From Epsilonproteobacteria bacterium tcs-49 (GTDB taxonomy: Bacteria; Campylobacterota; Campylobacteria; Campylobacterales; Sulfurovaceae), in NCBI GenBank assembly GCA_002049495.1, contig LLYS01000004.1:124001-188000 (forward strand): a stretch of DNA of 64,000 bases, given 5' to 3'. The notes beneath the pieces are model-generated. The model ran no database searches and was not told where the DNA came from. It worked only from the letters and a program-made list of their open reading frames with translations. This document shows, in pieces, positions 5,098-9,965 of the stretch (its first letter is position 1; each line of letters opens with the position of its first letter). The position numbers and the translations under genes were made by a program.

Positions 5098-6096
5098 GTG
5101 AAGATAGCCATAGTCAAACTCTCCGCTCTCGGGGATATTATCCAATCGGCGTTCGTACTGCAGTTTATCAAAGCTAAACTGCCCGAAGCCACCGTCCACT
5201 GGATCGTCGAGGAGAAGTTTGCCGATATCTTAAAAGACGTCGACGACGTAGATGAAGTCAAGACGGTCAACCTCACAAGCGTCAAAAAGCGCTTTCGCAA
5301 CATTTTCAAAGAGATCAAAAAGATCAAAAGTTTCGGAGAGTACGATCTCGTGATCGATATGCAGGGCTTGCTCAAATCCGCTATCGTCGCCCGATGTGCG
5401 GGCAAAAACGTGGCGGGCTTTGACAAAGAGAGTGCCCGGGAAAAGTTGGCGGCGCTGTTTTACAAAAAGCGCTTTTTCCTTCCCTACGCGATGCACACGG
5501 GTGATCGCTACCGATTGCTTGCGGCCAACGCTTTGGATATCTCCATCACCAAAGCCGAAGTGGTGGAGAAAAAACCCTACATGACGGGCAACAAGATCGT
5601 CGATACCTTCAAAAGCGATAAAAAACGGTTCGTGTTTATCGTAGGCTCGACGTGGGAGAGCCGCTGCTACCCCAAAAAGCAGTTTTTGGAAGTGGCCAAG
5701 GGGCTTGAGGGCGATATCTTCATCCCCTTTGGCAACGACATGGAGTACAACTTCGCCAAATACCTTGAAGAGCACGCCGACAACGTCACGGTACTGCCGC
5801 GGCTGGATCTGTGCCGTCTGCGCTCGGTCATCGCCAAAGCCGATCTGGTCATCGGCAACGATACGGGACCGACCTATCTGGGCTGGGCCAACAACATCCC
5901 GACGGTGATCCTTTTTGGTCCCACCCCGGCGGTACGGGTGTATGAAACACCCCGGTGCAGATTGCTCAAATCCCCCTCCAAAGTCGATCCGCTCAAGCTG
6001 GACAAGGGGGATTTTTCGATCCAAAAGATCGCGCCCCGCACCGTCATCGAAGCGGCGAACGAACTGCTCCAATACCAAGAGAATAAAGGGTTATAG
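5098..6096 (+). CDS. waaC: Lipopolysaccharide heptosyltransferase I
   Basis: A 332-residue GT9 glycosyltransferase that adds the first L-glycero-D-manno-heptose to Kdo on lipid A at the inner face of the inner membrane. It begins MKIAIVKLSALGDIIQS, the typical GT9 start, and has the nucleotide-sugar motif VIGNDTGPTYLGWAN near residue 260. It starts at GTG, preceded by GAGGAGC; translation from this point gives the expected N-terminus. It overlaps lpxL by one base and leads a five-gene + strand series. WaaC is favoured over WaaF because of its partnership with the acyltransferase, as in relatives. Confidence 0.92.
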   Translation: MKIAIVKLSALGDIIQSAFVLQFIKAKLPEATVHWIVEEKFADILKDVDDVDEVKTVNLTSVKKRFRNIFKEIKKIKSFGEYDLVIDMQGLLKSAIVARCAGKNVAGFDKESAREKLAALFYKKRFFLPYAMHTGDRYRLLAANALDISITKAEVVEKKPYMTGNKIVDTFKSDKKRFVFIVGSTWESRCYPKKQFLEVAKGLEGDIFIPFGNDMEYNFAKYLEEHADNVTVLPRLDLCRLRSVIAKADLVIGNDTGPTYLGWANNIPTVILFGPTPAVRVYETPRCRLLKSPSKVDPLKLDKGDFSIQKIAPRTVIEAANELLQYQENKGL

Positions 6097-6980
6097 TGCA
6101 ATACAAACTCGTCATATTTTTTATCAAAGCGGTAATGCTTTTACCCGCTAAGTTACGATTGGCACTGTTTAAGTTTCTGGGATATCTCGTCTACCTTCTC
6201 GATGCCAAGCACAAACGTGTCATCGAGATCAACGCCAGACACGTCTACAAAGACAAGCTCACCCCCGAGCTGCTCAAAACGATCCAAAAGGGGTGCTTTA
6301 AATACCTCTTTTTAAATATCCTCACCATGATCGAAGCGGGCAGTTTCGACAAGGAGCGGATGCGAAGCCGCATCACCTTTGAAAACAGGGAGTATATCGA
6401 CACGCTGCTAGCGCAGAACAAACCCATCGTCATCGTCACGGCACACTTTGGCAATATCGAAATCCTGGGCTACGCCATCGGCCAGTTTCTCATGCACATG
6501 GTACAGGTACAAAGACGGGTCAAAGATGAAAAACTCACCGCCTTTATGAAAGCGCAGCGTCAAGGATACGGTCTGGATATCGTAGAAAAAAAGGGAGCCG
6601 TACGCCACCTGATGCGCGCTTTGAAAAAGAAGATCCCTATCTCGCTGGTAGCCGATCAAAACGTATGGCACGATGTGGGCAGCCGCATCAAATTTCTGGG
6701 AGAAGATGCGTACCAGACCAACTCTCCCGCGTTTTTGGCGCGCAAATTCGACGCGGCGATCGTCCCCGTATTTATGAGCTACGATGACGATACGCACTAT
6801 CGTATCACTTTCAAAGAGCCTTTCTACGTGGAAAAAACCGACAACGAAGAGCAAGATATCTTCGACGCCACCCAAAAGCAGGCCGATATCATGAGCGAAG
6901 AGATCCTCAAACGCCCCGACCACTGGTTCTGGTGCCACAAACGTTTCCACGGCCCTACCCCGGAGATCTATGAGCGATAA
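6096..6980 (+). CDS. lpxL: Lipid A acyltransferase, LpxL/HtrB family
   Basis: A 294-residue lauroyl-type acyltransferase that adds a secondary acyl chain to Kdo-lipid A at the inner membrane. One N-terminal membrane anchor (about 6-30) precedes the catalytic HX4E motif HFGNIE near residue 115 and a conserved ADQNVW further on. It starts at GTG, which overlaps the waaC stop (TAGTG), implying coupled translation. Its stop lies 11 bases inside the next gene. The acyl chain length used cannot be told from the sequence. Confidence 0.92.
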   Translation: MQYKLVIFFIKAVMLLPAKLRLALFKFLGYLVYLLDAKHKRVIEINARHVYKDKLTPELLKTIQKGCFKYLFLNILTMIEAGSFDKERMRSRITFENREYIDTLLAQNKPIVIVTAHFGNIEILGYAIGQFLMHMVQVQRRVKDEKLTAFMKAQRQGYGLDIVEKKGAVRHLMRALKKKIPISLVADQNVWHDVGSRIKFLGEDAYQTNSPAFLARKFDAAIVPVFMSYDDDTHYRITFKEPFYVEKTDNEEQDIFDATQKQADIMSEEILKRPDHWFWCHKRFHGPTPEIYER

Positions 6981-8223
6981 GATCTTTGTGTGGGACCACC
7001 ACTCCGACCAGCCCTACCCCATCGCCGACCGCGCGTACAAAAAGCATATCTATAAAAAAGCGCTACCCGATATGCTCAAAATGTTCGCCACGAGTTTGGC
7101 ACTGGCTCCGGCTATCGCCCTGAAGTACCTCTTTATTGGCGGCAAAAAACCCGATATGGGCACGCTTTTTGGTATGGGAGTCAACCTGGACCAACTCCCC
7201 GAGGATTCCCCCGCGCTGATCAAGGAGCTGGGGATCTCTCACCTGCTTATCCGCCTCAGCCTAAACGACATGGCAAACCTGCCGCGCTATCTGGAGTTTG
7301 TCCAAAGCTTTAAAGGGGCAAAGGTTACGCTCAATATTTTGCAAGACCGTGAACATATCACCGATCCCGCCCTGCTTGAAAGGGACCTGCGCACGATCTT
7401 TGAAACTTTTGCCCCCCATATAGAGGCGATGCAGATCGGCAACGCGATCAACCGCAAAAAGTGGGCGTTTTTTACCATGGGGGAGTATATGCGCTTCTTT
7501 GCCGTCGCCAGAAGGGTACAGCGAGACTACCCCCATATCGAGCTGATCGGCTCCTCGACCATCGATTTTGAGTACCACTACACCATACGTACCCTTTTCA
7601 ACGGGTTTAAACAGCGCTTTGACAAAGTGGCTTCGTTGCTTTACGTGGATCGCCGCGGCGCACCGGAAAACAGGCAGATGGGCTTTGATCTGTTTAAAAA
7701 GATCAAACTGCTCTACGCCATCGTCGCGCTCAGCTCTTCCCCCAAGCGTTTGATCATCAGCGAGATGAACTGGCCCATCAGCCACACCGCCCCCTACGCC
7801 CCCACCAGCGAAAAGGAGTGCGTCAGCGAAGAGGTATACCGCAACTATCTGGTACGCACCTACCTCATCGCAGCGGCTACGGGGATGGTGGAGACGATGT
7901 ATTGGCACCAGCTTGCCGCCAGCGGCTACGGGTTGATCGATCTGCGAGAGGGCGTGCGCAAGCGTGAGGCCTTTGAAGCGATGCGGGTGATGGTCTCCTT
8001 TTTGCAAAAGGCGCGTCTGCGCAGCTACCGCTTTGACGAAACTTACGAGATGCGCTTTGAAAGCGATACGCATCTTATCGAGGTTTTTTGGGCTACGGCA
8101 CAGACGCGGCAAGAGATCGAAGGCGAGCTCTATGATATACTGGGCAAAAGACACAAGCGGCTGCATATAGGCCAAGCCCCGCTTTATCGATTGAGAAAAA
8201 TCGGGACTAAAAAGGGAGAATAG
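6970..8223 (+). CDS. Glycoside-hydrolase-like (clan GH-A-like) protein, acid/base Glu replaced
   Basis: A 417-residue protein whose central part (about 65-350) has the rhythm of a TIM-barrel clan GH-A hydrolase: MGVNLD near the start, AMQIGNAINRKKW at 153-165 where such enzymes have GNE (acid/base), and LIISEMNWP at 261-268 with E265 in the nucleophile position. Ala159 stands where the catalytic acid/base Glu would be, so ordinary retaining hydrolysis is doubtful. A hydrophobic stretch near 38-56 could be a membrane anchor. It overlaps lpxL by 11 bases and precedes moxR by 2, so a role in LPS or surface-sugar handling is inferred. Confidence 0.65.
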   Translation: MSDKIFVWDHHSDQPYPIADRAYKKHIYKKALPDMLKMFATSLALAPAIALKYLFIGGKKPDMGTLFGMGVNLDQLPEDSPALIKELGISHLLIRLSLNDMANLPRYLEFVQSFKGAKVTLNILQDREHITDPALLERDLRTIFETFAPHIEAMQIGNAINRKKWAFFTMGEYMRFFAVARRVQRDYPHIELIGSSTIDFEYHYTIRTLFNGFKQRFDKVASLLYVDRRGAPENRQMGFDLFKKIKLLYAIVALSSSPKRLIISEMNWPISHTAPYAPTSEKECVSEEVYRNYLVRTYLIAAATGMVETMYWHQLAASGYGLIDLREGVRKREAFEAMRVMVSFLQKARLRSYRFDETYEMRFESDTHLIEVFWATAQTRQEIEGELYDILGKRHKRLHIGQAPLYRLRKIGTKKGE

Positions 8224-8225
8224 GA

Positions 8226-9146
8226 ATGATTGAGACGGTAAAAAAGGAACTTTCAAAGGCGGTAATCGGCCAGGAAAAGATGGTCGATGCCCTGCTGATC
8301 GGTTTGCTGTGTGACGGGCACATCCTCCTAGAAGGCGTCCCCGGATTGGCAAAGACCACCACGGTCAAAGCCCTTTCACAGGCGCTCAAGCTGGATTTCA
8401 AACGGGTACAGTTCACCCCCGACCTGCTGCCAAGCGATATCATCGGCGCCGAGATATACGATATGACCAACAACAGTTTCAAAATCAAACAGGGCCCCAT
8501 CTTTACCAACCTGCTTTTAGCCGACGAGATCAACCGCGCCCCCGCCAAAGTACAATCAGCCCTTTTGGAGGTGATGCAGGAAAAGCAGGTCACCATCGGC
8601 GACACCAGCTTTGCCATAGCCCCGCCTTTTTTGGTGCTCGCGACGCAAAATCCCATCGAACAAGAGGGCGCGTACGAACTCCCCGAAGCGCAGCTGGACC
8701 GTTTCATGCTCAAAGTCGTCATCGGTTATAACACAAAAGAGGAGGAGCTGCGCATCGCGCAGACGGTAGCTAACCACAGCTTCAAACCCGTAGAGGCGGT
8801 GATGGACCTTGAAGCGCTGGAGCGCATGAAAAAGGAGGTGGAACAGATCCATATGGATGAGGAGGTGGAGAAATATATCGTCGATTTGATCTTTGCCACC
8901 CGCGACGAGAAACAGCAAAAATACCTCCAGTACGGCGCCAGTCCCAGAGCGACCATCGATATGTACAAAGCGGCAAAAGCCTACGCCTATATCAAAGGCA
9001 AAGACCACGTCTCCCCCGTCGAGATCGCCGCCGTGGCCAAAGATGTCCTGCGCCACCGCATCGTACTCAACTATGACGCCCAGGCCAGGGAGATCAACCC
9101 CGACAGCATCATCGAAGAGATCATCCAAGAGGTGGATATCCCCTAA
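8226..9146 (+). CDS. MoxR-family AAA+ ATPase
   Basis: A 306-residue AAA+ ATPase of the MoxR group, chaperone-like proteins that help assemble or activate partner complexes. Walker A is GVPGLAKTT (about 38-46), Walker B LLLADEINRAP (about 97-107), sensor 1 is in ATQNPIEQEG, and the sensor 2 region is GASPRATIDM. It is followed without a gap by a DUF58 gene, the usual partner of MoxR. A VWA-domain protein, often part of such systems, is not found next to them here. Target unknown. Confidence 0.93.
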   Translation: MIETVKKELSKAVIGQEKMVDALLIGLLCDGHILLEGVPGLAKTTTVKALSQALKLDFKRVQFTPDLLPSDIIGAEIYDMTNNSFKIKQGPIFTNLLLADEINRAPAKVQSALLEVMQEKQVTIGDTSFAIAPPFLVLATQNPIEQEGAYELPEAQLDRFMLKVVIGYNTKEEELRIAQTVANHSFKPVEAVMDLEALERMKKEVEQIHMDEEVEKYIVDLIFATRDEKQQKYLQYGASPRATIDMYKAAKAYAYIKGKDHVSPVEIAAVAKDVLRHRIVLNYDAQAREINPDSIIEEIIQEVDIP

Positions 9147-9965
9147 ATGAGTCGGGAGCTGGAAGCCAAAAAGGTTGTTTTAAAAGCCAAAAAACAGGTC
9201 TTTAGCGGCGTACTGGGCAATAACTCTTCGCTGTTTAAGGGGCAGGGGTACGACTTTGTAGAGCTGCGTGAGTACCAAGAAGGCGATGACGTCAAGCATA
9301 TCGACTGGGTCATCACCGCCAAGCAGCACAAACCCTTTGTCAAAGTCTTTCACGAGGAGAAGCAGCTGGGTGTCGTACTCATACCGCTGCTAAGCGGCAG
9401 TACCTTTTTTGGGACCAAGCGGCTCAAAACCGACCTCATCGCCCATATCTACGCCATTCTTTCCTTTTCGGCGATCAAAAACGGCGACATCTACTCCAAG
9501 TATCTTTTTACCGATCGGATACTGAGCAAAGCCAAGCCCACCAAAAAGCACCACCAGATCCTAGAAGACGTCAAAGAGATTATGCACTTCAACCCCCTCT
9601 CCCATACGATCGATTATGAAAAGCTCAACACCCTTTCGATCAAGAAAAAATCCCTGCTGTTTCTCATGGGGGATTTCGTCGGCGATGCCGACCTCTCTTT
9701 GCTTGCGCACAAGCATGACGTGGTCGCCGTGATCGTCCGTGACCGCTTCGAGGAGGATCCGGAGGAGCTGGGACACCTTGCCACCATCGATCCGGTGACA
9801 AACAAAGCCCAGGAGATCGACCTGAGTGCGAATTTGATTACCCAATACAAAGCCGCCCTGGCGGAAAACGACCGCAAACTCTACCGGCACTTCCGCCAAA
9901 ACCGCATCCGCTTTGTCAAAATCTATACCGACGAGGATCCCTTTGTCAAGTTGATGCGGTTGTAA
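9147..9965 (+). CDS. DUF58-domain protein, partner of MoxR
   Basis: A 272-residue DUF58 protein. The family signature lies near residue 40: YDFVELREYQEGDDVKHIDW, followed by VKVFHEEKQL. The region after it resembles a von Willebrand factor A fold, although a full MIDAS is not obvious. The ATG follows the moxR stop directly, so the two are surely co-translated. Unlike many DUF58 proteins, no N-terminal membrane helices are present, suggesting a cytosolic protein. Function unknown beyond association with MoxR ATPases. Confidence 0.9.
   Translation: MSRELEAKKVVLKAKKQVFSGVLGNNSSLFKGQGYDFVELREYQEGDDVKHIDWVITAKQHKPFVKVFHEEKQLGVVLIPLLSGSTFFGTKRLKTDLIAHIYAILSFSAIKNGDIYSKYLFTDRILSKAKPTKKHHQILEDVKEIMHFNPLSHTIDYEKLNTLSIKKKSLLFLMGDFVGDADLSLLAHKHDVVAVIVRDRFEEDPEELGHLATIDPVTNKAQEIDLSANLITQYKAALAENDRKLYRHFRQNRIRFVKIYTDEDPFVKLMRL

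What the first reader, a model, noticed from the sequence alone, without database searches (positions are those of the whole stretch)
6970..8223. Glycoside-hydrolase-like protein without the acid/base Glu in an LPS operon
The clan GH-A pattern has Ala159 in QIGNAIN where the acid/base Glu is expected, while nucleophile-like E265 remains. It overlaps lpxL and sits two bases before moxR. The enzyme may be a transglycosidase, a sugar-binding regulator or have a displaced acid/base.
Basis: partly seen in the sequence, partly recalled or inferred. Interest (0 to 1): 0.55.

Follow-up and report, generated by a model that had tools for sequence, protein, structure and literature searches.

The report
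Glycosidase look-alike paired with LPS kinase
The gene encodes a sugar-cutting-enzyme fold that has lost a key catalytic residue and travels, sometimes as one fused protein, with a kinase thought to phosphorylate the sugar core of the bacterial outer membrane, so it probably helps that kinase rather than cutting sugars.

Summary
ORF 6970-8223 is predicted with high confidence to be a GH39-type TIM barrel plus C-terminal beta-sandwich (pLDDT 92; closest solved folds GH39 5jvk, Z 32.8, and PslG, Z 30). Position 159, at the end of strand 4 where clan GH-A carries its acid/base Glu, is Thr, Ala or Val in all 174 rows with a residue there; Glu265 is kept in 172 of 172. The active-site face is the best conserved part, so the protein is not decaying.

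The new result is a partner. A WaaP/KdkA-type LPS-core kinase is present in 98 of 113 genomes with this gene but 2 of 285 without it. It lies next to the gene in 17 of 18 gammaproteobacterial loci, and is fused to it in 14 of 20 Pseudomonadales matches, in both domain orders. In the GH-then-kinase fusions Glu265 is lost too (7 of 7). I read the protein as a pseudo-glycosidase that recognises the LPS core for its kinase on the cytoplasmic face. An enzyme needing no acid/base is the main rival. Seven good-quality genomes have the gene but no such kinase, which counts against strict dependence.

The parts
6970..8223 (+). pseudo-GH39 protein, 417 aa, LPS-core setting
   Evidence: ORF; fold; family
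6991..7014 (+). N-terminal motif W8-D9-x-x-S12-D13-Q14-P15, near-invariant; in the kinase-then-GH fusions a version of it lies at the junction of the two domains
7030..7134 (+). N-terminal helix, residues 21-55, hydrophobic part with near-invariant Pro47; probable inner-membrane attachment
7141..8004 (+). TIM barrel, residues about 58-345
7444..7446 (+). Ala159 codon, place of the GH-A acid/base Glu
   Evidence: T/A/V in 174 of 174 rows with a residue there
7450..7464 (+). N161-R162-K-K164-W165 motif after strand 4; N161, R162 and W165 are also invariant in both kinds of kinase fusion (position 164 is Arg in one)
7564..7572 (+). D199-F200-E201 motif after strand 5 (D199 invariant; 201 is Glu or Asp in the fusions)
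7648..7656 (+). D227-R228-R229 motif after strand 6 (R228 also invariant in the fusions)
7762..7764 (+). Glu265 codon, place of the GH-A nucleophile; Tyr or Ser in the 7 GH-then-kinase fusions
8014..8199 (+). C-terminal beta-sandwich, residues about 349-410; least conserved part and absent in members of about 350 aa
5098..6096 (+). LPS heptosyltransferase I (waaC type), upstream neighbour
   Evidence: TIGR02193, 245.8 bits against cut-off 185.3
6096..6980 (+). lipid A acyltransferase (lpxL type), overlaps the gene by 11 bases
   Evidence: NF006270, 248.8 bits against cut-off 248; PF03279

Best explanation
A pseudo-glycosidase: a GH39-type barrel that no longer hydrolyses glycosides. It serves as the partner of a WaaP/KdkA-type kinase in lipopolysaccharide-core assembly at the cytoplasmic face of the inner membrane. 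Its old substrate cleft, now lined by invariant or nearly invariant N161, R162, K164, W165, D199, E201, R228, W268 and W312, holds the growing lipid A-core acceptor (acidic Kdo or phosphorylated heptose), and the kinase phosphorylates it. Shown by tool results: the fold prediction, loss of the acid/base in the whole family, loss of the nucleophile in one fused branch, LPS-core neighbourhoods, and co-occurrence, adjacency and fusion with the kinase. Inferred: physical contact, acceptor binding, which sugar is phosphorylated, absence of glycosidase activity, and cytoplasmic location of the unfused form.
For: Fold; one search puts GH39 5jvk (Z 32.8, rmsd 2.6, 329 aligned) and PslG (Z 30.2-30.6, rmsd 2.8, 338 aligned) above the next group, GH30 (Z 25.9). 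Acid/base gone: 174 of 174 rows with a residue; the GH-then-kinase branch reads GNTPN or GSTPN in 6 of 7 rows. Nucleophile: Glu in 172 of 172 rows, but Tyr in 6 and Ser in 1 of 7 GH-then-kinase fusions. Kinase: 98 both, 15 GH only, 2 kinase only, 283 neither of 398 genomes; control GT2 core gene 94 of 113 against 160 of 285. Adjacency on the same strand in 17 of 18 gammaproteobacterial loci, upstream in some and downstream in others. Of 20 Pseudomonadales genome matches, 7 are kinase-then-GH and 7 GH-then-kinase fusions, 4 are separate with the kinase in the same locus, 1 is cut by a contig end, 1 is a true GH39. The fused kinase is PF06293 over cut-off in 4 of the 5 fusions scanned. Active-side loops are conserved at 0.80 against 0.52 for the opposite side. 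Same side as kinase: 12 of 14 fusions have no 19-residue stretch above 1.43 on the Kyte-Doolittle scale; cysteine content 0.84%, like the GT9, kinase, GT2 and GT4 neighbours (0.75-1.43%) and unlike a PEA-transferase-type domain expected in the periplasm (0.22%).
Against: After three weak fragment matches are dropped, 12 genomes have the gene and no A3-type kinase even at E 0.01; 7 of them are at least 90% complete and at most 5% contaminated, and PF06293 gives only weak matches in 2 of the 12, in frames of 567 and 1951 aa. Glu265 is absolutely kept in the unfused family, which is more than a pure binding domain needs. In the window's own genome the kinase is on another contig. The co-occurrence test takes no account of relatedness. 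No complex was modelled and no contact shown; no tool printed residue-by-residue equivalence with PslG.
Confidence: 0.52

Rival explanations
1. Active transferase: Glu265 attacks a donor whose leaving group needs no protonation (nucleotide sugar or lipid-phosphate sugar), and the sugar passes to the LPS core; the kinase acts before or after on the same sugar. The invariant Arg and Lys residues hold the phosphate.
For: Glu265 in 172 of 172 rows; R95, R162, K164, R228, R229 in all 174 rows with a residue; heptosyltransferase, PEA-transferase-type and kinase neighbours. GH-fold transferases exist, e.g. GT108 with the GH130 fold (PMC8950772, passages). A predicted glycosyl hydrolase, 2898, is needed for outer-core completion in Acinetobacter baumannii with unclear role (PMC10936431, passages).
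Against: Glu265 is replaced in all 7 GH-then-kinase fusions, and R95 and R229 with it. No donor-binding motif was identified.
Confidence: 0.25
2. Hydrolase with a displaced acid: Asp199, Glu201 or Asp227 has taken over the acid/base role.
For: D199, E201 and D227 are in 174 of 174 rows with a residue, after strands 5 and 6.
Against: A cytoplasmic hydrolase in a core-building locus has no evident job; the partner kinase is not explained; the nucleophile is lost in one branch.
Confidence: 0.1
3. Phosphate-assisted glycosidase or transglycosidase: the phosphate placed by the partner kinase on the substrate stands in for the missing acid/base.
For: Would explain both the missing acid/base and the tight link to a sugar kinase.
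Against: No direct evidence; the nucleophile is missing in one fused branch; some members have no recognisable kinase.
Confidence: 0.06
4. A decaying, functionless remnant.
For: Catalytic residue lost; shortened ORFs of 240-241 aa exist in two related genomes.
Against: 49 positions are at least 97% identical over 175 rows, gathered on the active face; spread over two phyla with intact frames.
Confidence: 0.02

Closest known systems
PslG of Pseudomonas aeruginosa (GH39)
   Same: Barrel plus C-terminal beta-sandwich over residues 58-410, Z 30.2-30.6
   Different: PslG has acid/base Glu165 and nucleophile Glu276 and cleaves an exopolysaccharide (PMC11912335, passages); here position 159 is Thr/Ala/Val and the partner is an LPS kinase
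GH39 of Bacteroides cellulosilyticus (5jvk)
   Same: Best fold match, Z 32.8
   Different: Extra N-terminal beta-sandwich (PMC6933502, passages); no kinase partner known to me
CmGH1 of Croceicoccus marinus (GH39-related; 5z3k in the fold list)
   Same: GH39 fold (Z 24.5) without the usual pair: Gln157 and Tyr264 (PMC6933502, passages); Tyr at the nucleophile place recalls the GH-then-kinase branch
   Different: Reported to be an active glucosidase (same passages); no kinase link
WaaP/RfaP and KdkA LPS-core kinases (PF06293)
   Same: The partner kinase is a distant relative
   Different: To my recollection the known ones work without a glycosidase-like partner; here a barrel is paired or fused
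Klotho pseudo-glycosidase domains
   Same: GH-A barrels used for binding (alpha-Klotho is in the Foldseek list, rank 28); their missing catalytic Glu is recalled, not tested
   Different: Animal hormone co-receptor, unrelated pathway
Acinetobacter baumannii core locus protein 2898
   Same: A predicted glycosyl hydrolase needed for LOS core, role unclear (PMC10936431, passages)
   Different: Sequence relation not tested; no kinase named in the locus passages I saw

Membership tests
GH39 (clan GH-A) | TIM barrel with C-terminal beta-sandwich like GH39 | tested here: met
GH39 (clan GH-A) | acid/base Glu at the end of strand 4 | tested here: not met
   T/A/V in 174 of 174 rows with a residue; a true GH39 picked up by the profile, L237, reads YEVWNE there
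GH39 (clan GH-A) | nucleophile Glu at the end of strand 7 | tested here: met
   E265 in 172 of 172 unfused-family rows; replaced in the 7 GH-then-kinase fusions
GH39 (clan GH-A) | sequence match to Pfam PF01229 | tested here: not met
   no match for the window protein or the other 45 members of A2; 0 of 60 genomes including G000
GH39 (clan GH-A) | retaining glycosidase activity | not testable with these tools
   needs an assay
WaaP/KdkA kinase (the partner) | PF06293 kinase with conserved catalytic residues (HxD...N, DxN) | tested here: met
   A3 invariant H149, D151, N156, D172, N174; PF06293 over cut-off for L051 and for 4 of the 5 fusions scanned
WaaP/KdkA kinase (the partner) | phosphorylates an LPS-core sugar | not testable with these tools
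   needs an assay

The most novel reading that the evidence does not exclude
A two-part LPS-core enzyme in which a sugar kinase and an acid/base-less GH39 barrel act on the same sugar, the phosphate added by the kinase standing in for the missing catalytic Glu (or marking the sugar that the barrel then transfers): a phosphorylation-switched glycosidase or transglycosidase.
Probability: 0.08. Interest if true: 0.9.

Novelty: new variant of a known kind. Interest (0 to 1): 0.62.

Why it matters
LPS-core kinases help to harden the Gram-negative outer membrane, and what recognises the core for them is not settled to my knowledge. A glycosidase fold turned into their partner, fused in both orders, gives a directly testable recognition subunit, a role for a family of at least 410 relatives in genome contigs that Pfam and NCBIfam do not cover, and a lead on why hydrolase-like genes turn up in core loci, as with A. 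baumannii 2898.

Tried and rejected
Sequence routes that found nothing: Pfam, NCBIfam and PDB sequence searches of the protein and of 46 relatives; plasmid tblastn; profile comparison with two partial PF01229-type proteins from Gammaproteobacteria (no useful alignment). In one search the true GH39 L237 was misaligned at strand 4, so its Glu there is read from the sequence, not from the alignment columns.

Rejected: a periplasmic PslG-like anchor as the simple reading (12 of 14 fusions lack any transmembrane-like stretch); moxR as partner; decay. Net charge before and after the hydrophobic helix (+4.5 and +1.7) did not settle topology by itself. The kinase's known subtype stays open: only weak matches to Kdo kinase and RfaP.

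Literature: searches gave no paper; others gave lists in which I saw no report of this pairing by title and abstract start. That is a thin basis for saying it is unpublished. The tree has very long branches for L237 and for the fused groups, so I use only that the two kinase-then-GH sets do not group together there.

Full report
What is in the window. ORF 6970-8223 (+) encodes 417 aa. It overlaps the lpxL-type gene (6096-6980) by 11 bases and ends two bases before moxR (8226); a waaC-type heptosyltransferase lies at 5098-6096.

Fold. With 46 family members as alignment AlphaFold2 gives mean pLDDT 92.1 and pTM 0.92: helix 21-55, barrel strands at 67-71, 91-97, 118-124, 153-156, 191-198, 219-225, 261-267 and 307-312, then a beta-sandwich at 349-410. 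Among the 999 chains aligned by VIA-align the best are GH39: 5jvk Z 32.8 and PslG Z 30.2-30.6, over model residues 57-410; GH30 follows at 25.9. Foldseek's own order by E-value starts with a GH30 and then GH39. Position 159 follows the end of strand 4, and E265 is at the end of strand 7. In clan GH-A these are the places of acid/base and nucleophile (established knowledge); PslG's are Glu165 and Glu276 (PMC11912335, passages).

Family. 113 of 398 genomes drawn from the order have a match, 98 of 397 drawn from the phylum by profile, and 410 relatives were found in genome contigs, of which the 80 best were kept; 18 of these carry gammaproteobacterial or plain 'Pseudomonadota' titles. I pooled 204 loci (all held at that point except the window's own copy and the four remnant loci L126-L129); all 204 had a match, giving 174 distinct sequences plus the window. 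Position 159: T 106, A 66, V 2, gap 1. E265: E 172, gap 3. N161, R162, K164, W165, D199, E201, Y225, D227, R228 and R229 are each in all 174 rows with a residue. Position 155 is Glu in 40 rows but Gln, Val, Ile or Met in the others, so it is no substitute acid. Loops on the active side average 0.80 identity to the commonest residue, those on the other side 0.52 (loop limits set by me).

Setting. In 80 neighbourhoods (79 loci plus the window; many end at contig ends, and my greedy ORF picking missed the window's waaC) the heptosyltransferase cluster occurs in 59, the kinase cluster in 51, the sulfatase-type (PEA-transferase-like) cluster in 28, GT2 in 31, GT4 in 24, an O-antigen-ligase-type cluster in 18 and lpxL in 11 (names). 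The next gene downstream on the same strand within 50 bases is a GT9 in 28, the sulfatase type in 10, the kinase in 10 and a PAP2 phosphatase in 7 of 72.

The kinase. Profile A3 (18 kinases) matches 100 of the same 398 genomes; 98 of them have the barrel gene, 15 barrel-positive genomes lack the kinase, 2 have the kinase only, 283 have neither (Fisher p about 6e-74, relatedness ignored). A GT2 core gene as control is in 94 of 113 and 160 of 285. In the window's genome the kinase is on contig C13 (L215:6693-7433, +), among GT2-like and GT9 genes, not next to the barrel gene. In 17 of 18 gammaproteobacterial loci it is next door on the same strand, upstream in some and downstream in others; in the exception, L057, the contig ends soon after the gene.

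Fusions. A profile search of 234 genomes of the order of G570 matched 20; I call this order Pseudomonadales from memory of where GTDB puts the Nitrincolaceae named in L060's title. Reading the frames: 7 are kinase-then-barrel (L219, L222, L224, L225, L226, L227, L229), 7 barrel-then-kinase (L230, L231, L232, L233, L234, L235, L236), 4 separate with the kinase in the same locus (L218, L220, L221, L223), 1 cut at a contig end (L228), and 1 (L237) a true GH39-type protein with YEVWNE and FTEFSWP and no kinase. L218 is the same locus as L060. In the tree the two sets of kinase-then-barrel fusions do not group together and the barrel-then-kinase set is one branch, so fusion probably arose more than once; long branches make this provisional. 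In the barrel-then-kinase set the strand-4 motif is GNTPN or GSTPN in 6 of 7 rows, with Thr where GH39 proteins have the Glu of their NEP motif (motif recalled); E265 is Tyr in 6 and Ser in 1, and R95 and R229 are lost, while N161, R162, W165, D199, E201, R228, W268 and W312 stay.

Side of the membrane. 12 of 14 fusions have no stretch with mean hydropathy above 1.43 over 19 residues, so barrel and ATP-using kinase should share the cytoplasm; the other two keep the hydrophobic helix between the domains. Unfused members have that helix (median 2.12, 186 of 197 at 1.6 or more); it may attach the protein to the inner membrane from inside. Cysteine content agrees with a cytoplasmic protein. The motif WDxxSDQP lies at the domain junction in the kinase-then-barrel fusions (in altered form in five of seven), which suggests a docking or linker role (inference).

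Reading. A glycosidase barrel that lost its acid/base in all members and its nucleophile in one branch, and yet keeps a conserved cleft and a kinase, is best read as a recognition partner for that kinase. The strongest points against it are that E265 is absolutely kept in the unfused family and that 12 genomes with the gene show no such kinase, 7 of them of good quality. A transferase that uses an activated donor remains the main rival.

Noticed in passing
L126:2869-3594 (-), L127:3130-3852 (+); also matches in G354 and G278: ORFs of 241 and 240 aa match only the later part of the family profile (from about residue 190-200) and lack the first half of the barrel: shortened relatives or remnants. 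The matches in G354 and G278 look similar but their ORFs were not listed.
   Followed up: partly
8226-9965: moxR and DUF58 genes follow directly in this genome; the moxR cluster has one member among the 80 neighbourhoods, so the link looks specific to the window.
   Followed up: partly
L216:1396-2292 (-) and L217:602-1486 (+): Two Thiotrichaceae genomes that hold the barrel gene also hold PF01229-type pieces with a canonical PNE motif; these lie in short ORFs.
   Followed up: partly
G010 and G334: Two genomes have the kinase but no barrel match, one of them from the window's own family.
   Followed up: no
family members of about 350 aa (e.g. L006, L008, L081, L105): A set of members ends before the C-terminal beta-sandwich.
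   Followed up: no
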